This document shows positions 1 through 62,617 of a DNA stretch of 64,000 bases, piece after piece (within the stretch, counting starts at the first letter, position 1; each line of letters starts with the position of its first letter). A program made the translations under genes and the position numbers. The notes below the pieces were generated by a model. That model had not been told where the DNA came from. It worked only from the letters and a program-made list of their open reading frames with translations, and ran no database searches. The DNA lies in the NCBI GenBank assembly GCA_963854835.1, contig OY978526.1, forward strand, positions 74,930,418-74,994,417. The letters are read 5' to 3'. Origin of the DNA: Megamerina dolium. Its lineage: Eukaryota; Arthropoda; Insecta; Diptera; Megamerinidae.

Positions 1-268
1 CCAAATTGTACATACGGCACTTTGCCTCCACCGCCATCGTCGGCAAATCTTGCAGCTGCCACAACCATGCTGATGCCAACATCAGCGGCAGCATCGCTTC
101 ACAGCAGTTTACTTATCTCTGGACATGGTGCGCCGTCGGGTGCCAAACCGCTGTCTATAGATGCGCTAGGCGGTGTGGCAGGCGGAGGCGGTCGACAGCA
201 TACACCACCACCGCCAGGCGCCTATATGGGTATTTGCTCACCTACCGTTAGTGGGACAATGACAATGG
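1..268 (+). CDS. Internal coding exon of an unrecognised host gene (5' end outside window)
   Basis: Frame 1 is open from the first base of the window to a consensus splice donor (G|GTAAGT, intron starting at 269), so the gene begins upstream. The encoded part is low in complexity: proline runs (PPPP twice), alanine, serine and glycine stretches (GGVAGGGG), and no transmembrane segment or catalytic motif. Such a composition is common in the disordered tails of insect signalling, channel or adhesion proteins, but nothing here names the family. The exon ends with one base of a codon left over (phase 1), and this base joins the next exon to make a glycine codon. An ATG at 22 is internal and need not be a start. 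I do not recognise the gene and give no function. Confidence 0.8.
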
Positions 269-536
269 GTAAGTAATAAATTCCTTTGGTGGTAGTTATT
301 TTTTATTCCTATTTCGTGTTGTTGCGGCTACGTCCGCATTAAAAGCACACGAAAGAGAGCAAAGGGCAGAAAGACAGCGAGAGAGGGAGCGGAGTGAAGA
401 GATAAGCACTTAATATTTTTGCAAATAGAATTTGCAAATATGATTTTCATATTTATGTTTTTTTTTTCTTCTTTGCTTTATCTTTTACTTTTTCTTTTTG
501 CTTTTTGCCTTTTCTTTGATCTAAATCTCATTTCAG
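269..536 (+). other. Intron, 268 bp, phase 1
   Basis: The donor is GTAAGT at 269-274. The acceptor is CAG ending at 536, preceded by a long T-rich polypyrimidine tract (about 455-533). Splicing G268 to G537-T538 restores a GGT glycine codon and keeps both exons in frame. The intron contains an A/G-rich run at about 340-400 with no obvious function. An open frame starting at 419 lies in the intron and is not a separate gene: it is the acceptor-side exon read back through the pyrimidine tract. Confidence 0.85.
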
Positions 537-859
537 GTCCGCATTTGCTGGCGCCATCTGCTTTGAGTTCGGTCTCCCACAGTTCTGCTGGTGCAGTACC
601 CTCATACCTGTCAGGCGCAATAATGGTACCAGGTCATCATCATGGTCATGTTGCAGGCACTTTGCGGCGAACGCTAATACCAACCAGCATGGGCATGTTG
701 AGCACAACGACGCAGCAGCCAAGCGGCAGCGCTGCGGTCTATTCACACGCAATGGCTGGCGCGCTTCCATCGAATTCGGGTATTTACTATGACAGTACTG
801 TGCCACGTAATCTAAATCGCGGCATGTCAGCCGACAATGCACAATATTTCTACGGATGA
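537..859 (+). CDS. Last annotated-type coding exon, ending in TGA at 857-859
   Basis: This exon continues the reading frame of 1-268. With that exon it gives 196 in-window residues before the TGA. The product stays disordered and rich in Ser, Ala, Gly, His (GHHHGH) and Met, then becomes more constrained just before the stop (YYDSTVPRNLNRGMSADNAQ). There is no recognisable domain. The stop is TGA followed by C, and the frame downstream remains open (see next entry). The context therefore suggests either a true C-terminus with a leaky stop or a mutated arginine codon (CGA to TGA). No homologue is recognised. Confidence 0.8.
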
Positions 860-1342
860 CATTCGCTGAATCGCAAAACATCACTTCCAATCGCTATTGC
901 TGTGAGACAACCACCGGTCAGTTTCAATCTAATGCCAATGTCGGCCACAATGGGCACCGCGGCATCCTCGTCAAGACAAAGCATGTGCTCTGGTGGCAGC
1001 GGTAGTCGTGCAGGAACACCTACAGGTGCTTCCAGTATCAATACCATCCCTGAAATACCATCAATTACAGTAACAGGATCGCTAGGACCAACACCGTCGT
1101 CGATATTTGTCAATAAACCGAATGCCTTGAAGATGCCAACATTTCAGGAGGATGAACCAATCAACCAAAGCACATCGGCATCAAACCAGCAACAACAACA
1201 GACAACAAATACTGCCTCTCAACAGCAACAGCATCAGCATCATCAGCATCATTCATCGCATCATCACGACCCATCGACAACTAGTATATGTACTAATGTG
1301 ACGACGGTACCTACATCGATGGGACGTAGTAACTTTTACTAG
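860..1342 (+). CDS. In-frame C-terminal extension beyond TGA (candidate stop-codon readthrough)
   Basis: Exactly in frame with the preceding exon, 160 sense codons follow the TGA before a TAG at 1340-1342. The extension starts HSLNRKTSLPIAIAVRQPPV, which looks like coding sequence, then runs through Ser/Gly-rich sequence (SSSRQSMCSGGSGSRAGTP) and a more constrained stretch (IPEIPSITVTGSLGPTPSSI) to Gln- and His-rich runs (NQQQQQ, HQHHQHH). An open frame of this length with such composition is unexpected in an AT-rich 3' UTR. UGA-C is known as the leakiest stop context in Drosophila readthrough genes. Alternatives are a sequencing or assembly error, a strain-specific nonsense change, or an unseen alternative exon that skips the TGA. 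Confidence 0.65.
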   Translation, partial: HSLNRKTSLPIAIAVRQPPVSFNLMPMSATMGTAASSSRQSMCSGGSGSRAGTPTGASSINTIPEIPSITVTGSLGPTPSSIFVNKPNALKMPTFQEDEPINQSTSASNQQQQQTTNTASQQQQHQHHQHHSSHHHDPSTTSICTNVTTVPTSMGRSNFY

Positions 1343-2020
1343 ATCAATCACATACGTATCATAATCTAACCAAAGTCAGTTGTCAAACGAGAAGATTTTG
1401 TCTTGTCTACATATTTGTAAATAATCTTGAAAGCATTTTTATATAATTACCTGCATAGTTACTTAATTAATACATACACATCCACACATACATACATACA
1501 TACATACACATACATACTAGCAGATATAGAACAAAAAATTAGACAAATTCTATTTGTTTTTATTATATGATAGTCTATTCATAATATGAACTAAAAAAAT
1601 TATTATAAATATAATATGCAATATTGAGAGGCTAAGAAATGAACTGTGAACTCTCGGAGAGAGCCTACAGTAATCGTTTCAAAACGTTTCACATTTGTAC
1701 CACAAATGATTGCGCATAATTGTGTGTGCATGGGTTTTAAATATGTAGTCTATTTAATAAAATATCTAAATACTAGTCTAGTTAAGTATTGGTTAATACA
1801 TTTTTTTTTTAGTTTTGCCTTATGTACAGTTATTATTATAATAATTATTATTATTATTATAATTATTATGTGGAAAAAGAATTGAAACCAAATTGAATGA
1901 AATGCATTAAATACAGGTCAAATCAAACAAAAAGTCCATCCGTCAAAGTCCATTTAATACATATAATACACTCTATATGGTAAGTAGATCATCGATTTGA
2001 AATGAAAAATAAATTAATAA
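1343..2020 (+). promoter_or_regulatory. Probable 3' UTR and polyadenylation region
   Basis: AT-rich sequence follows the TAG. A canonical Pumilio-type UGUAAAUA element lies at 1416-1423. CATA repeats occupy about 1486-1518 and an ATT-type trinucleotide run occupies about 1830-1870. AATAAA signals occur at 1757-1762 and again near 2008-2025, so cleavage after either is possible. The exact 3' end cannot be fixed from sequence alone. Confidence 0.5.
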
Positions 2021-2169
2021 AATAAATTATTTCATATTATTATTAAACATGCTCAAAAAAATTTAGTAAATATTATCAGAATATGGTTTTTTTTTTTTTG
2101 TGCGTAAAAATTTTTATGCAAATATTAAAGAAACGGATTTAGAAACAAAAATATATGGAAAAAGTATTA

Positions 2170-2775
2170 TTAAGCCGGCTGTTGTGCCGAGATTGTGCAA
2201 TTGAATCTAGAAACATAGACTCGCTGTTGATTTCAACAAATCAACCTTTCACTCACCAGCCTGATGAGAATTTTGAATAAAGTTCTCGGACTATTCGGTT
2301 AAAAGGTCCAATTAATTGACAGCAATTAAACGATCATCCGCGTCGTTATCGCATCTTAGTTTGGACCTTAGATTATCTCGAAATAGATGTCAAATTTAGT
2401 CAAAAAACCATCTTTTCTGAAGCAAAATTTTCATATCTGGAGATAACAGATTACAGACTTTTAATGAGCTAAATTTGAAGGCAATGATTTTGACGGTATT
2501 TGGTTTCAGCAAAATGCCATACTAAGGCAACAAACAATCGATATTTTCGCATCATAGCGATATCAATTAACCACATCGGAGCTGTGGTTTAACACGATCC
2601 AGAAACGCTTCAGTTCCATAAGGTGAATATCGACAGAGCTGAGATATGTGCAATAGACCCAGAAATCAACAGACAGGTCTTGTAAAATTCGGTTGACACG
2701 ATGTGTTACTGTGAAGCCAGCCATAGGTAACCATATGAATGAAATCCTGTTTCATGAAACTCGTATTTAGACTAG
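2170..2775 (+). pseudogene. Decayed Tc1/mariner transposase of the DD41D (rosa-like) group
   Basis: Read across frames, the plus strand keeps a recognisable order of transposase pieces. SLTSLMRILNKVLGL (about 2250) resembles the second helix-turn-helix. NDHPRRYRILVWTLDYLE and then FSQKTIFSEAKF (about 2330-2435) match the segment around the first catalytic Asp, whose codon is lost (FSEAKF instead of FSDEAHF-like). DGIWFQQN (about 2493) matches the second catalytic motif, with Asp changed to Asn. Near 2745 NEILFHE resembles the family C-terminus. The stretch carrying the third Asp is missing. Frameshifts and stops make it inactive. No terminal repeats were found. It belongs to the same broad group as the element at 7151-8350 but is much older. 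Confidence 0.65.
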
Positions 2776-5456
2776 CTTTAAGTAAAATTATATGCTATAG
2801 TGAGTTAAGCATTCTCACTGAAAAATAAAAGAGGGGCAAAAAACGTTTCATTTTTCAACATTATCTTAGTCTTAGCCTTCTTCTTCGGTTTCGATTCACC
2901 ATGAGGAGTTCACTGTCTAGATTGTTACTTGGTCTCTGGTGTGTTGATGACGAAACGGCGCAAAAACTCCAAAACTCAGTTGCGTTTAAATTATTGTCAA
3001 TTGTTTAAATCTTTAAGTTCGCATACCTTAACTCGCCGTTCGTCCAATATCATAATATGGATTTCATCAACCATTACCAGCGTGGTGGTCTCAATTGGGC
3101 AATCAGAATGTTCGTTGTCAGAAATAGAAAAAACCGATTGGTTCCTATAGATGGAAGCAAATTTACGAAAAACCAAACAAAAATATGTTTTGAGAAAAAT
3201 TTATTCTCGTCGTTTTGGCAAAGCCTCCAAAAATTGCTCATAAAAACATTTCTAATTAGTTCTTTTTCTCAAGTGCTGATAAATTGGACAGAACTAATAT
3301 TCATACTTAAATGAACAAGTCATTTGGTATTAAGTCCCATCTTGACATATTACCATAATTCCACCACCTAAATCTCTATGGAGTCATTTTCATAATAGAC
3401 GACAAGGTTTTTCCAACTTTTTTTTTTTGATTCAGATGAATTAAACAACGCCCACTTTAGCAAAAAGTTAATACCATTGTGAATTGAACTATCTTTCAAT
3501 TTCATTTTTTTTTTGTGTACGTGTTGTGTACAAAGTATTATATCTTAATTACATGCAAAAGTTGCAACTTGTATATTAATGTGCTACCGCCCAAGCTTCA
3601 GTATCTATACTCTTCATATAAAATAATACAGAAGATAACTTGTATAGAGTACTAAAAACATCGATTTATTACATGCATAAGTATTTCCTATTGAATGTAT
3701 TGTTATGAGAGAGACATACATACATACGTATATATCGTAGTAACAATGAGTGTATGAGTATTTGTCTCTTCCATAGAGATACAGTGAAGTGGCAAAACGT
3801 GCGCACTGAGCTGTGGTAATTGAAATTTAATATGATTTTAATGTACATACATACTGTATTACAATATAATGAAATAATATCACCCACACAATAAATTTCA
3901 TTATTTCTTTAATTACTCAGTACAACATACGAGTTCGAGTAGATGAGTTGCTTGGATTATTTTCTGGATGATCCAATCTCAATGTACTTATATTAAATTT
4001 CTAGGTACCTATGTTCATATTTTTGTTGTTTTTTTTTTCAACATTAATCAACTTTATTCGAATATAATTAAAAAAGAATAAATAAAGAAAACCAAAAAAA
4101 AAAAAGACTTTGGACAATGCTAATTAGAGCCAAAAAAAAACTTAAGGATTGAAAATCTAAAGGCCATAATAATGAAGCAAAGCATTTACAATCGTATTAT
4201 GTTTTCGGCAAATATTTATGTGCGAAAAATATGAAATATTGGAAGGAAAATTATTTTATTTTATTTTTTCCAAGAACTCCCACACAAAAAAAAATATGAC
4301 AAATTTCTGATACTCAAATCGAAAAATCGTACTAAAAATATACAAGTAATCGGTACTCCAGCCATTTGGGAGCTTTGTGACAATAAAATGACATAGATGA
4401 TAAGTTTCCTTAGCAGAGTTAATTGATTTTTTATTTTATATATAAATTTCAAGCATATATCAAATAGAAATGATTCAAAAATATTGAAATAATTTTGTTG
4501 CAAAGTACTTTCTTCCTTCCCTTTTCTCCCTTTCTTCTTAATTATGTTATTTTTGACGACCTTAAAATAAAAATATCCCGATAAGTTACATCTCTGTACA
4601 GTAGACATTATGAAAATAATTGGTAACATTGTCTACAGTTATATTCGCTAATATTTATCGCCATATATATATCGATGCTAACTAAGTACGTAGACCGAGA
4701 AAAATGTCCATAATCAAGAATGGAAAAAATCCAATTTTCTATCTCTTTTTTCTTCGTTTGTCATATCTAATCACTGTGTATATAATTTTTTTTTTCCTGA
4801 GTTCGCAAATTTGATCATCAATGTGTTGACTGTTCTTGTCATCATTATGACAAGGCCATTCTTTTAATGTGATTTTCTATAATACAATTTCACTGATATT
4901 TTAGTTATGACCTTACGAATGTCCAAAATATGTCCATATAAACACTTTCATCGGCATCAATCCCATGATTTTGAATTATTTTTCTTAATATTTCAATATG
5001 TACATATGTATTTGAAATCATGGATGCGGGTTAAAAATCTCATCATTTTCTTTTAGAAGTCTCTAATTGTAAATTATACAGTTATCGTCTAAAAGCACAC
5101 AATTTATTAGTGTATAATTTTAAAAATATTATTACTAAAAGTAACCTTCGTATATACGTCGTATTAAATTTTAAATCAAATTTTTTGTTGTACACTGATT
5201 TTATTAGCTGTTAAATGTATGCTTGTATTGAAGGGAAAAAAGGATCTAAACCAGAAGAAAAAAAGAAGAAAAATTCAAATAACAAATGTTTTAAAGATGT
5301 TTACGTACATTTACTTACATACGTCTTTTACTTCATATTCGTCTTAAGTCTTCGTCTTTTACTTAAGAGCATCACACTCGATTGGAAGCATTAAATTATA
5401 TACCCACATACATTCATACATACGCACTAGATGTACATGCATACAAACTCATACAT

Positions 5457-5502
<46 letters not shown>

Positions 5503-7148
5503 AGAGCCCCAAATGCTTGCTTTCACAGTTTAGTACAATATTTCTATACATATACATTCATACACTTACATGTAAGTGGTGGTATATATTTCAGCCTTTT
5601 ATGGTACAAACTTCCTGTGCTATAATCTTGAAGTATACAATATGTATGCACGTACATAGAGTAGTATATATTGTACAATATAATAGCAGCATGTAATCAC
5701 ATAGCTCAATGTGCACATTATAACCGGTATGGTGATACTCATCCCAGTGGTCACTTATTCCACCCAACAGAAGGCACACTATTTGACATATGTTCAAACA
5801 TGATTCTTAGAAGTTGATAGTAAATGTTTGTAATCTTATGCCAGAATATTGCAGACATTATGGCGTCTTGCAACGAAGAAAATACCAGCTAAACCAAATA
5901 GAAAACTTGTGGCAAGCAAAGGCGCGTTATCGAAGAAAGCACATAATATATAAAAATATCGTATAGATATATTTATGAATGTATGTCGGTACCTACTTGC
6001 TTTAAAATGTACTCGTTTGATTTTTCCTTTTCTATGTATAATTCGTCAATGCAGCCAAGTACTCAAAGAGTAGAATAACATAAGTAAAATATGTTCGAAA
6101 AGTATGTACATAAGCCAAAAATTTATCGTTTCTTAGGGTTATATGAAAATTGAAAAGAATAAGCTTTATTCTCACATTCGATAAATTTCATAATGTCCAT
6201 TAGTTCTGTTGGAATTTTTTCACAGAATGTAATTGCTTCAGGGACATATGTACAATTGTTCTATGATTTCGTTCACTCAATTTACGCATGTTGTTATTCT
6301 AATATTTGACATTTTGAATTGACTTATCAAACATGAATTACGCAGAATATAAATTCAATAAAATTCACCTTTTAATGCCATACATTTTAATTAAACAAGT
6401 CTAATGTATATGTATGCATAGGTGCATTGGGTATTTTGGTTCAAAAATTCTCGTACACAATATCACATAGGGTAAATACGGGTTTGCATACCATTCAATT
6501 CGAATGCGAATGCTAATCAATTGATTCACTAAGCATGATCCATTTTATTCCACATACAATTGCGTACATTATTTAAATTATGTCAATTTATTAGACATTT
6601 ACAAAATGTAATTTTCAATACTTCTTCCATTTATAATATACCATATATTTACTTAGGGTGAATATATATTGGATATTTAAAAGGTGTCTTTGAAAGGAAG
6701 CGCACACAAATTTGTTCGAATTGTCTGACCTTTATTCGGGGGATAATTTCTTAAACAGTTTTTCTATAGTCAAATAAATGAATATTTAACAGAAAGAAAA
6801 TTTATGTCACCATTTGATGAAGAAAATTCGTTTAACACTTATCAGGCTATTGAATATACAACTCTTCGCGTTTTAATGTGCTTTCAGGTATACCATACGA
6901 GTATGAGCGTCATATTTGGTTTGATCATGAGTCGTCCAATAAATAAACACTTTTTTTAACATGTAGCAGCACCTTGAGAGTCTAAAGCAACAAAATGACC
7001 AATTCTTCTTGCAATGTTAAATTCGACTGACTTATCAACACAGGCTCATAGAAGGTTAGTTAGAAGAGGTTTCTCTTACGCTCGGAGAACAAACTATCCA
7101 ATGAGATTCTAACACTTTCTACACGTGCATTTTCATCCAATATATATA
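2776..7148. other. Gene-free AT-rich stretch
   Basis: I see no coding exon, RNA gene or recognisable transposon here. Short open frames (for example 2929-3314, 4261-4629, 5382-5696) have AT-driven composition (Phe, Tyr, Ile, Lys) and no family resemblance. Poly-A and poly-T tracts and scattered CATA/TACA words occur throughout. A GA microsatellite is listed separately. Confidence 0.6.
5462..5501. repeat. (GA)n microsatellite
   Basis: About 40 bp of nearly pure GA dinucleotides with one G interruption. It produces an artificial Arg-Glu repeat in open frames. Runs like this can bind GAGA factor in flies, but nothing else here suggests a promoter. Confidence 0.9.
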
Positions 7149-7150
7149 TA

Positions 7151-8350
7151 AAGGGTTATCCATTTCGCGGTTTCAAAAGTATAGGGCTAGAATTCGACAT
7201 CTGTCAAACTGAGTTGTTAAAACAATTTCTTTCTTTTTCAGTTCAAAGTCTGACTTTTGCGAAAATGGATCGCTTAACTATCGCACAACGCATTAAAATT
7301 TTAAAAACCTACTACAAAAATGGTCATTCTGCCACAGCCACATATCGTGCTTTAAGAGGAGATTATGGTTTACATAATCGTCCAACTACGCAAGCAATTG
7401 GCAAAATTGTGAAGAAATATGAAGAGACTGGATCGGTTACAGATATTGTAAGGCAGATACAGATATTGTATTGCATCATCGTTTCGCTCGTACCACCGAA
7501 AATATCGCTGCTGTAAGTGAAAATGTTGCCGAAGACCCGAATGTGTCGATTCCTCGTCGTTCTCAGGAATTAGCACTGTCTTACGGCACATTATGGCGTA
7601 TTTTGCATTTGGATCTACACCTACATCCATATAAAATCCAGCTCACACAACAACTGAAGCCAGCTGACCATTCACAACGTCGTAGATACGTCGAATGGGT
7701 GCTTGAACAACAGGCGGTGGACGGCGATTTTTCGAACAAAAGTCACTGCTTGGTGCGCTCTTTGGTCCGGAGGTGTGATTGGACCTTACTTCTTCGAAAA
7801 CGACGATGGAACGACTGTCACCGTCAATTCGGAGCGTTATGGTCATATGATAACCGACTTTTTTTTGCCTGCTATTGAAGAATACGACTTAGAGAATATG
7901 TGGTTTCAACAAGACGGTGCCACATGCCACACAACTCGAGCGAATATGGCTTTATTGCAAGAGAAATTTTCTGGCCGCGTAATTTCTCGTCGTGGCGATA
8001 TCAAGTGGCCACCAAGATCATGCGATTTGACACCGCTTGACTTTTTTTTGTGGGGCTACGCGAAAGACCGTGTTTATGCAGATAAACCTTTAACTCTTGA
8101 GCACCTAAAAACCAACATCCGTCACGTTATGGCTGAAATACCGCCCAATATGTGTCAAAAAGTGGTCGAAAATTACCTCAAAAGAATCGATGCTTGCAAC
8201 AATTCGCGTGGTGGTCATTTAAATGATGTAGTATTTCACACATAATGTCAACGTTCAAACTTTATAATAAAAAAGAAATATCATGATAAAAAATATTTTA
8301 TATGTGTTTTATTTACATTTACTTTTGAAACCGAAAAATGGATAACCCTT
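7151..8350 (+). mobile_element. rosa-like DD41D mariner-family transposon, complete ends, internally damaged
   Basis: The 1200-bp element is bounded by near-perfect 31-bp terminal inverted repeats beginning AAGGGTTATCCATTT and ending GGTTTCAAAAGTA (29 of 31 matching). It is flanked by TA at 7149-7150 and 8351-8352, the target duplication expected for Tc1/mariner elements. The transposase frame runs from 7265 to 8245. Well-preserved ends with a broken gene suggest relatively recent, possibly non-autonomous mobility. Confidence 0.92.
7265..8245 (+). pseudogene. DD41D transposase, frameshifted and lacking its first catalytic Asp
   Basis: The start MDRLTIAQRIKILKTYYK at 7265 opens an N-terminal helix-turn-helix. 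Near 7440-7465 an 11-bp word (CAGATATTGTA) is repeated and the frame moves. The second frame carries RRSQELALSYGTLWRILHLD and continues to GDFSNK near 7740. There the sequence jumps to VTAWCALWSGGVIGPYFFE in the first frame, so the intervening block with the FSDEAHF-type first catalytic Asp is deleted. The rest is intact: second Asp in FQQDGATCHTTR and third in SCDLTPLDFFLWGY. There are 41 residues between these two acidic positions, which defines DD41D, the spacing of rosa from Ceratitis rosa. The C-terminus is GGHLNDVVFHT. No active enzyme can be made from this copy. Confidence 0.88.
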
Positions 8351-31225: not shown

Positions 31226-31760
31226 TTGGAAAAAATTAATAAGAGTAGAGTAATTTAGAGCCTATAGTTTATGATTAAATAATAAGAAATTTTATGAAAA
31301 ACCTACTTTTTGCTTTATTAATCAGGATGGTCTAGAGCTAAAATTCTATATATTCTAAATTAAATGAGTTAAAATATGCATATGCAACGCATGTTTAATA
31401 CAAACACTATATATATACATGTATACATTGAAAAAAAAAATGTACAAAAACACATTCTTGTGTCTCATCTGAAATTTGGGATTAAAAACAATTATGCCAT
31501 CTCCAACAAATGCAGCGCCACCTGTTTTAATTAACGATCTCATGTACGAAGTTTCACTCAGCAACGTTGGTAACACATTAATTTCCTCGATATCATAGCA
31601 TTTGCAAGAAACCAGAGCTCTCACCAGTGCTAAATTAGAGTGGCACGCAAACAACTTTGACAGTGACTGCCAGCTACAGCCAAACATGCATGCTGGACAC
31701 ATACGTACTTGCTCGTATATCGAATATAGTGGGTCGATGGCGGCCAACAGTTGTTCTGCC

Positions 31761-31800
31761 TGATGATGATGATGATGATGATGATGATGCTAATGATGAT
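31761..31800. repeat. (GAT)n trinucleotide run
   Basis: Ten or more GAT triplets, with a short interruption before a second small run. Confidence 0.85.
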
Positions 31801-55020: not shown

Positions 55021-56190
55021 ACGAGGGCGAAAGGCAGCACAAACACAAAAAATTGCGATATGTCAAACGTGAGCTGGTAAAATTTCACCAAAATTCATCG
55101 ATTAGTTTATTTGTTGTAGTCGTTTGAAGTAACCAACTTTTGTGTGTCTTGAAAAATGGAAAAAAGCGAATTTCGTGCAGTGATTAAACACTATTATTTG
55201 AAAGGGAAAACGGCGAAAGAGACAAAAGAAAAGCTCGATAAACATTACGGTGAGTCTGCTCCGTCAGATTACATGGTAAAATATTGGATTGCTGAATTTA
55301 AACGCGGCCGAACAAGCACTGCAACAATACCATCAACAGGAAGGCCAAAAGAGGTGGTTACTGAAGAAAATATCAAGAAAATCCTCGATATCGTTATGAA
55401 TGATCGCCGAGTCAAGTTGCGTGAGATTGTTGAAATGGTAAACATCTCATATGAACGTGTGTTCAACATTTTGCATGAACATTTGCATATGAAAAAGCTA
55501 TCGGCAAGATGGGCGCCGCGTTTACTCAGTGTCGAACAAAAACGAGTTCGAGAGACCACTTCACAGCGTTGTTTGGACATGATAAAGCGTAATCCTGTTG
55601 ATTTATGGCGTCGATTAATAACTGTTGATGAAACGTGGATCCACCACAACACACCTGAAACCAAAAATCAATCGAAACAATGGGTGGAAGCTGATGGAAG
55701 TGCTCCGAAGTAGGCGAAGGCAGTGAAATCGGCTGGCAAGGTTATGGCCACTGTATTTTGGGATGCACTCGGAATATTGCTTATCGATTATCTTGAAAAA
55801 GGGTCCACAATCACAGGAAAGTATTATTGTGCATTATTGACTCAATTGAATGATGCAATCAAGAAAAAACGACCACATTTAAAGAAGAAAAAAGTGCTCT
55901 TTCTTCAAGACAACGCACCGATTCACACAGCATTAGATACGATGCTAAAATTACGTGAAATACACTTCGAATTGATTGATCATCCACCTTATAGTCCAGA
56001 TTTAGCTTCTAGTGACTTTTTCCTGTTTCCAAACTTGAAAAAATGGCTCGCAGGAAAAAGATTCAGCTCAAACGAAGAAGTGATTACCGAAACTAACGCG
56101 TATTTGTACTACCTCTTTGTTTGATGAAAACCGTTTACAACGAAAGAATGTGTGAAGTGTGGAAGAAACTCAAAGAAGAAGCATAATCGG
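55021..56190 (+). mobile_element. Nearly full-length irritans-like mariner, right end not found
   Basis: A probable left end starts ACGAGGGCGAAAGGCAGCAC just after a TAT (55018-55020), 135 bp before the transposase start. A matching right-end inverted repeat is not visible after the coding region, so the right end is probably lost. Confidence 0.7.
55156..56124 (+). pseudogene. Mariner DD34D transposase with one in-frame nonsense codon and altered C-terminus
   Basis: The frame opens MEKSEFRAVIKHYYLKGKTA and continues through two helix-turn-helix regions to the linker WAPRL (position of the WVPHEL motif). The first catalytic Asp is in ITVDETWIHH, the second in LFLQDNAPIH, and the third in YSPDLASSDFFLF. 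There are 34 residues between the second and third, which defines DD34D. A TAG at 55711-55713 breaks the frame once, at SAPK*AKAVKSAGKV, and the same frame resumes directly. The protein then ends early: after SSNEEVITETNAY the family's C-terminal helix is replaced by YLFV and a stop. Resemblance to Himar1-type proteins places it near the irritans subfamily. Confidence 0.88.
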
Positions 56191-61994: not shown

Positions 61995-62617
61995 TATTAC
62001 CTACTTACCTACTTACTAATGAGGCCATAACAACCAAATATCGATTTAGGGCGAAAATAACATGCTTCGCCTGCCATCTCTGTTCTTCACTAGTTGGCGC
62101 CAATTAGAAATTCCAAGCGCCGTCAGGATCTCCAGTACTTGATCCTTCCACCGGAGGTTTGGTCTTCCTGTGCTTTACTATGTCAATATCGTCATACAGC
62201 TCGTACAGCTCATGGTTGTACCTTATTCGGTACTCGCCACCAATGCAAATAGGTCCAAAGATCTTGTGTAGAACTTTTTTCTCGAAAACTCCAAGCATTC
62301 GCTCATCCGAGGTGGAAATTGTCCAGGCTTCAGCGCCATATGTTGGGACAGGCATGATGAGAGACTTGTAAAGTGTAGTTTTCGTTCTTCGAGAGAGGGC
62401 TCGACTTCTCAATTGCTTACTCAGTCCAAAGTAACACCTGTTAGCAAGAGTTATCCTACGCATAATCTCCAGGCTGACGTCATTACTGCTGTTAATGCTG
62501 GTTTCAAGATAGACAAAGTCCCTTACTACTTCAAAAGCGTAGTTGTCAACAGTGACATGCTGTCCAAAACGCCGGGACTCTTTGTTTATTTTTCTATTAC
62601 ATGGGTTTAATGTTGTC
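61995..62617 (-). pseudogene. 3' part of a non-LTR retrotransposon, minus strand, same family as 59.4 kb
   Basis: A minus-strand frame is open from about 62617 to 62104. It reads NKESRRFGQHVTVDNYAFEV, VRDFVYLETSINSSNDVSLE, IMRRITLANRCYFGLSKQLR, SRALSRRTKTTLYKSLIMPV, PTYGAEAWTISTSDERML and KKVLHKIFGPICIGGEYRIR. This is the thumb and linker region following the reverse transcriptase palm of LINE proteins. After NHELYELYDDIDIVKH it jumps to KTKPPVEGSSTGDPDGAWNF, so the RLRWxGHVxRM-type segment has been deleted. The 3' end has a TAAGTAGG-type tail (about 61998-62020). It is truncated at the 5' end and has no active-site palm. Confidence 0.82.

What the first reader, a model, noticed from the sequence alone, without database searches (positions are those of the whole stretch)
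537..1342. Candidate stop-codon readthrough: TGA-C followed by 160 in-frame codons
The frame of two spliced exons passes a single TGA at 857-859 and stays open to 1340-1342. The extension has protein-like composition on both sides (GMSADNAQYFYG, stop, HSLNRKTSLP) and ends in typical insect Gln/His repeats. UGA followed by C is the context most associated with readthrough in Drosophila. If real, the host gene makes two C-termini, the longer with a His/Gln-rich tail.
Basis: partly seen in the sequence, partly recalled or inferred. Interest (0 to 1): 0.78.

Follow-up and report, generated by a model that had tools for sequence, protein, structure and literature searches.

The report
Readthrough extension of fly eva-1 gene
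The last exon of a fly gene for an EVA-1-like cell-surface receptor has a leaky-type stop codon followed by 160 more open codons whose protein sequence is partly conserved in a fruit fly, so the gene most likely makes some longer receptor by reading through the stop.

Summary
Two exons (1-268, cut by the window edge; 537 on) join in frame, reach TGA-C at 857-859, and the frame stays open for 160 codons to TAG 1340-1342. The host gene is the fly eva-1-like gene; a truncated D. busckii relative is labelled CG42402. Of 44 proteins found, 40 (26 species) end exactly at the TGA position, so the stop is an old terminus. One, a partial Drosophila setifemur model, continues into a tail homologous to this extension (31 of 70 identical, E 1e-9; 0 of 5000 shuffles). 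The conserved SLPIAI block (881-898) lies before the first AG after the TGA (905) and the first in-frame ATG (codon 25), so neither a GT-AG intron that removes the TGA nor AUG reinitiation can yield it. No SECIS match in 1-3000 and no unusual RNA fold. Best reading: UGA-C readthrough lengthening the receptor's tail; likely, not shown, since no relative's DNA or ribosome data were at hand. New member of a kind common in insects.

The parts
1..268 (+). Penultimate coding exon (5' part lies outside the window) of an eva-1-like gene
   Evidence: open frame, donor GTAAGT at 269; by eye its peptide resembles relatives' PNCTYG...SGTMTMG.
269..536 (+). Intron (GT...AG, 268 nt)
   Evidence: the splice gives the SGTMTMG/PH junction that relatives show, by eye.
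537..859 (+). Last annotated-type coding exon, ending ...SADNAQYFYG and TGA
   Evidence: 54-69 identities over all 107 residues with 40 of 44 relatives, all 40 of which end at the same place.
857..860 (+). Putative readthrough stop, UGA with C as next base
   Evidence: position matches the C-terminus of 40 of 44 relatives.
860..1342 (+). 160-codon C-terminal extension and its TAG stop
881..898 (+). SLPIAI block, identical in D. setifemur, upstream of the first AG after the TGA (905) and of the first in-frame ATG (codon 25)
1187..1267 (+). Gln/His-rich tract with mixed CAA/CAG and CAT/CAC codons
   Evidence: Codon listing; coordinates counted.

Best explanation
This is the 3' end of the fly eva-1-like gene (secretory N-terminus, SUEL-type lectin domain, one transmembrane helix, cytoplasmic tail, judged from relatives, since the window holds only the tail). 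Most ribosomes stop at UGA-C and make the short receptor ending in QYFYG. A minority decode the UGA with a near-cognate tRNA and add 160 residues to the cytoplasmic tail: a conserved part (SLPIAI...MGT, ...EIPSITV...) followed by a variable Gln/His-rich end. Shown: anatomy, shared stop position, protein-level homology of the extension in one relative, no GT-AG splice or AUG route to its conserved start. Inferred: that ribosomes pass the UGA, how often, and what the longer tail does (most simply, extra binding sites that change signalling or localisation).
For: Frame and TGA-C. Relatives and common stop position, 40 of 44 proteins, 26 species by their names. Extension versus D. setifemur P0041: BLASTP 31/70 identical, 42/70 positive, E 1e-9; local score 109 against a mean of 31.7 and a maximum of 59 in 5000 shuffles; with the first 100 residues alone 107 against a maximum of 71 in 5000; the other five frames of that DNA score 20-31. 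No AG in 860-904 and first in-frame ATG at codon 25. GC falls to UTR level after the second stop, not the first. TGA as first stop, C as 3' base, a second ORF over 100 codons and loss of coding signal after the second stop are named as marks of fly and mosquito readthrough genes in PMC5100048 (passages). UGA is the commonest annotated readthrough stop in FlyBase, and many longer extensions mix low-complexity with conserved parts (PMC4528330 section 23).
Against: Only 1 of 44 relatives shows the extension; 40 stop at the TGA position and 3 are cut earlier. That one model is marked partial and lacks the codons around the stop, so continuity across the stop is not seen there; that species may have lost the stop or have an intron. 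A search with residues 105-215 of the padded query (extension codons 1-108) found nothing at E<=10 among 437 candidates. No DNA of any relative was available, so there is no synonymous-substitution test and no check that the relatives' stop is TGA. No expression data. RNA after the stop folds no better than shuffles (141 of 200 fold as well). UGA-C is followed here by AU, not by the UA of the high-readthrough motif UGA CUA G (PMC12233894). In the D. melanogaster ribosome data only 25% of readthrough events were at UGA (PMC3840789 section 12), and only 43 of 158 expressed predicted extensions showed clear readthrough in early embryos (section 9). Exon 2 itself has a weak period-3 signal (1.72). 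The extension scores up to 75 with the last 400 residues of other relatives, D. busckii.
Confidence: 0.8

Rival explanations
1. Alternative splicing: a minor isoform uses an acceptor after the TGA (with a donor inside exon 2, or that of exon 1), so the downstream ORF is an alternative coding part and no stop is read through.
For: 130 formal in-frame GT-AG pairs of 40 nt or more with a donor in exon 2 would remove the TGA and stay open (donors of exon 1 were not counted). The D. setifemur model lacks the 12 or so codons around the stop, as if spliced.
Against: The first AG after the TGA is at 905 (GTGAG|A), after the conserved SLPIAI block at 881-898, so no intron ending in AG can keep that block and drop the TGA. 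None of the 18 GTs of exon 2 reads GTAAG or GTGAG. All 40 relatives' models that run to this point stop at the TGA position.
Confidence: 0.08
2. A-to-I editing turns UGA into UGG in some transcripts, giving Trp and the same extension without stop readthrough.
For: One A-to-G change would do it; not testable from genomic DNA.
Against: Ribosome data in D. melanogaster gave evidence against editing at the readthrough stops that could be tested (PMC3840789 section 12). The RNA after the stop does not fold better than shuffles. The 5' G neighbour is, as I recall, unfavourable for ADAR.
Confidence: 0.04
3. The extension is translated separately from its own start (CTG at codon 3, or ATG at codon 25) as a second cistron.
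For: A CTG lies at codon 3 and ATGs at codons 25, 27 and 31.
Against: Conservation begins at codon 8, before the first ATG; the sequence lies in frame directly behind the stop and, in the D. setifemur model, is fused to the receptor.
Confidence: 0.03
4. The stretch is ordinary 3' UTR or a former coding end that is now decaying; the open frame is chance or a relic.
For: Only one relative with the extension was found.
Against: An open frame of this length in 57 of 20000 shuffles; protein homology to another fly; coding-like composition up to the second stop.
Confidence: 0.04
5. Selenocysteine insertion at UGA.
For: The stop is UGA.
Against: No SECIS family match in 1-3000 at E<=1; sequence beyond 3000 was not searched for it.
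Confidence: 0.01

Closest known systems
Conserved stop-codon readthrough genes of Drosophila and Anopheles (Jungreis et al. 2016, PMC5100048, abstract and passages; their 2011 paper is not held)
   Same: UGA as first stop, C as next base, long open second ORF in frame, shared stop position, coding-like signal ending at the second stop.
   Different: No codon-level alignment here. The label CG42402 does not occur in that paper's main text; its supplementary lists could not be read.
caps readthrough in Drosophila (240-aa extension of a leucine-rich transmembrane protein, PMC4528330 section 23)
   Same: A long extension of a transmembrane protein in which conserved parts and low-complexity parts alternate.
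   Different: Unrelated protein; there the extension resembles the unextended part of the related protein Trn.
EVA-1 / EVA1C, called Slit receptors (PMC3767613, abstract)
   Same: Relatives of the host gene carry SUEL lectin and, in some isoforms, EVA1 (PF14851) domains; several are named eva-1 or eva-1-like.
   Different: No held paper holds both 'stop codon readthrough' and 'eva-1'. That the fly protein binds Slit is not shown here.

Membership tests
Functional stop-codon readthrough gene | In-frame sense ORF directly after a genuine stop | tested here: met
   stop position shared by 40 of 44 relatives.
Functional stop-codon readthrough gene | Leaky context (UGA, next base C) | tested here: met
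   TGA C at 857-860.
Functional stop-codon readthrough gene | Protein-level conservation of the second ORF | tested here: met
   Homology to the D. setifemur tail, 31/70 identical, 0 of 5000 shuffles; one relative only.
Functional stop-codon readthrough gene | Coding-type (synonymous-biased) substitution, PhyloCSF | not testable with these tools
   No relative's DNA found in the viral and prokaryote collections; the genome search did not complete in 8 of 8 tries.
Functional stop-codon readthrough gene | First stop codon conserved as the same codon in relatives | not testable with these tools
   Only proteins of relatives were at hand; they show that a stop is there, not which one.
Functional stop-codon readthrough gene | No splice site or ATG that explains the coding signal from the stop on | tested here: met
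   first AG after the TGA at 905 and first ATG at codon 25, both after SLPIAI at codons 8-13. Later parts alone could be spliced formally.
Functional stop-codon readthrough gene | Ribosome footprints or peptides past the stop | not testable with these tools
   No expression data held.
EVA-1-like gene | SUEL lectin domain, transmembrane helix, characteristic tail | tested here: inconclusive
   The window holds only the tail, which aligns over all 107 residues of exon 2 with 40 of 44 proteins of this family; the 5' exons lie outside the window.
Selenoprotein | SECIS element in the 3' UTR | tested here: not met
   window 1-3000, E<=1: no SECIS among 3 matches.

The most novel reading that the evidence does not exclude
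The fly EVA-1 receptor has an old readthrough conserved between Drosophila and this fly's lineage, overlooked by genome-wide catalogues because the D. melanogaster gene (CG42402) lies in pericentromeric heterochromatin where alignments are poor; the rate of readthrough sets the ratio of two receptor tails and so tunes guidance signalling.
Probability: 0.25. Interest if true: 0.6.

Novelty: new member of a known kind. Interest (0 to 1): 0.42.

Why it matters
Readthrough is described as common in insects (PMC4528330 section 23), and PMC5100048 says that the function of most eukaryotic extensions is unknown (passage). A conserved long tail on an EVA-1-like receptor (EVA-1 is called a Slit receptor, PMC3767613 abstract) is a concrete, testable case in which leaky termination would diversify a likely guidance receptor. 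It also shows how one automatic gene model that steps over a stop can reveal an extension that 40 other models leave out.

Tried and rejected
Sequencing error or pseudogene at the TGA: rejected, since 40 of 44 relatives end there. SECIS: no match in 1-3000; the three weak miRNA-family matches there lie far below their gathering scores. RNA stem-loop after the stop: not better than shuffles (141 of 200 fold as well). CG34377, which PMC4528330 names as having two readthrough sites, was considered as the orthologue; a D. busckii record of this family bears the label CG42402 instead (P0043; it lacks the tail, and by eye is part of P0008), so that lead was dropped without a direct test. Gfat1, which neighbours CG42402 in six Drosophila species (PMC8834284, passages), was sought in the window with short recalled motifs and not found (one weak match, taken for chance). 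The extension and exon 2 have no Pfam match at 0.01. Relatives in viral and prokaryote contigs: none. Jungreis et al. 2011 is not held and supplementary files could not be looked up, so whether CG42402 is already listed or annotated in FlyBase is unknown. No listed name is of a tephritid or of the melanogaster group; the reason is unknown (candidate lists were capped, and rows stand for clusters).

Full report
Observation. The window starts inside a penultimate coding exon (1-268), followed by an intron with GTAAGT and TTTCAG ends (269-536) and a last exon from 537. The joined frame reads ...GIYYDSTVPRNLNRGMSADNAQYFYG, then TGA at 857-859 followed by C, then 160 sense codons and TAG at 1340-1342. 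In 20000 dinucleotide-preserving shuffles of the extension, 57 kept the frame open; the other five frames hold 7 to 11 stops. GC is 0.54 in the exons, 0.47 in the extension and 0.26 in the 500 bases after the second stop, so composition changes at the second stop, not the first. The period-3 signal of 860-1162, which leaves out the Gln/His tract, is 4.42, a value reached by 5 of 618 windows taken from the rest of the sequence; exon 2 itself gives only 1.72, so the measure is blunt.

Identity of the gene. A protein search with the last exon and extension returned 33 proteins, and one with the tail of a D. willistoni relative returned 44, the 33 among them: P0001-P0044 (both candidate lists were capped). 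All but P0039 carry the SUEL lectin domain (PF02140), many the EVA1 domain (PF14851); they are named eva-1, eva-1-like, uncharacterized or hypothetical. A D. busckii record (P0043, which lacks the tail) is labelled CG42402. The sequences printed show, by eye, a hydrophobic N-terminus in the complete ones, the lectin part, one hydrophobic helix (QFYLYLIISV...) and a long tail, so the extension would lie in the cytoplasm (inference). CG42402 lies next to Gfat1 in six Drosophila species (PMC8834284, passages) and stands in a gene table of a paper on pericentromeric heterochromatin of chromosome 3 (PMC8616060, one passage).

The stop is genuine. Of the 44 proteins, 40, from 26 species by the names (some are isoforms of one gene), align over all 107 residues of exon 2 and end at exactly the TGA position, with no residue left over. 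P0042, P0043 and P0044 are cut earlier and say nothing. P0041 goes further.

The extension is conserved as protein. P0041, a partial model from Drosophila setifemur (Sophophora, setifemur group), matches exon 2 (42 identities in 108 columns), lacks the roughly 12 codons around the stop, and continues with SLPIAIPMRLSPHVTFNMLPLTASIGT... This is homologous to the extension: BLASTP 31 of 70 identical, 42 of 70 similar, E 1e-9. The local score is 109 against a maximum of 59 in 5000 shuffles; for the first 100 residues it is 107 against a maximum of 71 in 5000; the five other frames of the same DNA score 20 to 31. For comparison, the best score of the whole extension with the last 400 residues of any of the 43 other proteins is 75; I take that for a low-complexity match, since the extension is His/Gln-rich. 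The lack of the stop-flanking codons in P0041 is what an automatic gene finder may do when it steps over an in-frame stop; a real loss of the stop or a real intron in that species is not excluded.

Why readthrough rather than splicing or reinitiation. The block SLPIAI is encoded at 881-898. The first AG after the TGA is at 905, so no intron ending in AG can remove the TGA and keep this block; the first in-frame ATG is codon 25. Any such mRNA with the block therefore carries the in-frame TGA, and its translation needs decoding of the UGA, editing of it, or a non-AUG start (CTG at codon 3). For later parts of the extension alone, 130 formal in-frame GT-AG pairs with a donor in exon 2 exist, so a splice isoform is excluded only for the conserved start. 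No SECIS was found in 1-3000, and the RNA after the stop folds no better than shuffles (z 0.63). Predicted structures occur in 9% of the Anopheles readthrough candidates (PMC5100048), so their absence weighs little.

Comparison with known cases. PMC5100048 (passages) names TGA, cytosine as next base, a second ORF over 100 codons, a conserved first stop and loss of coding signal after the second stop among the marks of readthrough in flies and mosquitoes. The first three are met here; the conserved place of a stop is met at protein level, its codon unknown; the last is met by composition only. That paper separates readthrough from splicing and from dicistronic genes by coding signal between the stop and the next splice site or ATG; the SLPIAI block lies in that interval. 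PMC4528330 section 23 describes long low-complexity extensions with conserved parts, such as that of caps, another transmembrane protein. Cytosine after UGA as favouring near-cognate tRNA binding is from PMC12233894 (passage). EVA-1 as Slit receptor is from the abstract of PMC3767613.

Against and open. One relative only; no relative's DNA; no expression data. A search with the first 108 codons of the extension found no protein at E<=10 among 437 candidates, which fits both annotations that stop at the TGA and a poorly conserved extension. In D. melanogaster ribosome data UGA made up only 25% of readthrough events, and 43 of 158 expressed predicted extensions showed clear readthrough (PMC3840789 sections 12 and 9). 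Whether the case is already annotated in D. melanogaster could not be checked: the 2011 paper is not held, supplements were not open to me, CG42402 occurs in 5 held papers, of which I read passages of two, and no held paper joins 'stop codon readthrough' with 'eva-1' or with 'tephritid'. That the window is from a tephritid was not tested.

Verdict.

Noticed in passing
55153-56124 (+): Broken mariner (Mos1-like) transposase in two open pieces: HTH_48 in the first, Transposase_1 (and DDE_3 below its cut-off) in the second.
   Followed up: partly
7064-8245 (+): Overlapping open pieces of a transposase-like gene: DUF4817 helix-turn-helix in the first, a WFQQDGAT-type stretch in the last, which had no Pfam match at 0.01.
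   Followed up: partly
62104-62616 (-): 170-codon open frame that looks, by eye, like the end of a non-LTR retrotransposon reverse transcriptase; no Pfam match at 0.01.
   Followed up: no
31355-31789 (-): 144-codon open frame with protein-like sequence after a poly-His run; no Pfam match at 0.01; perhaps an exon of another gene.
   Followed up: no
P0001-P0044: The names listed include blowflies, muscids, Drosophila and a hoverfly but no tephritid and no melanogaster-group species, although both would be expected.
   Followed up: no
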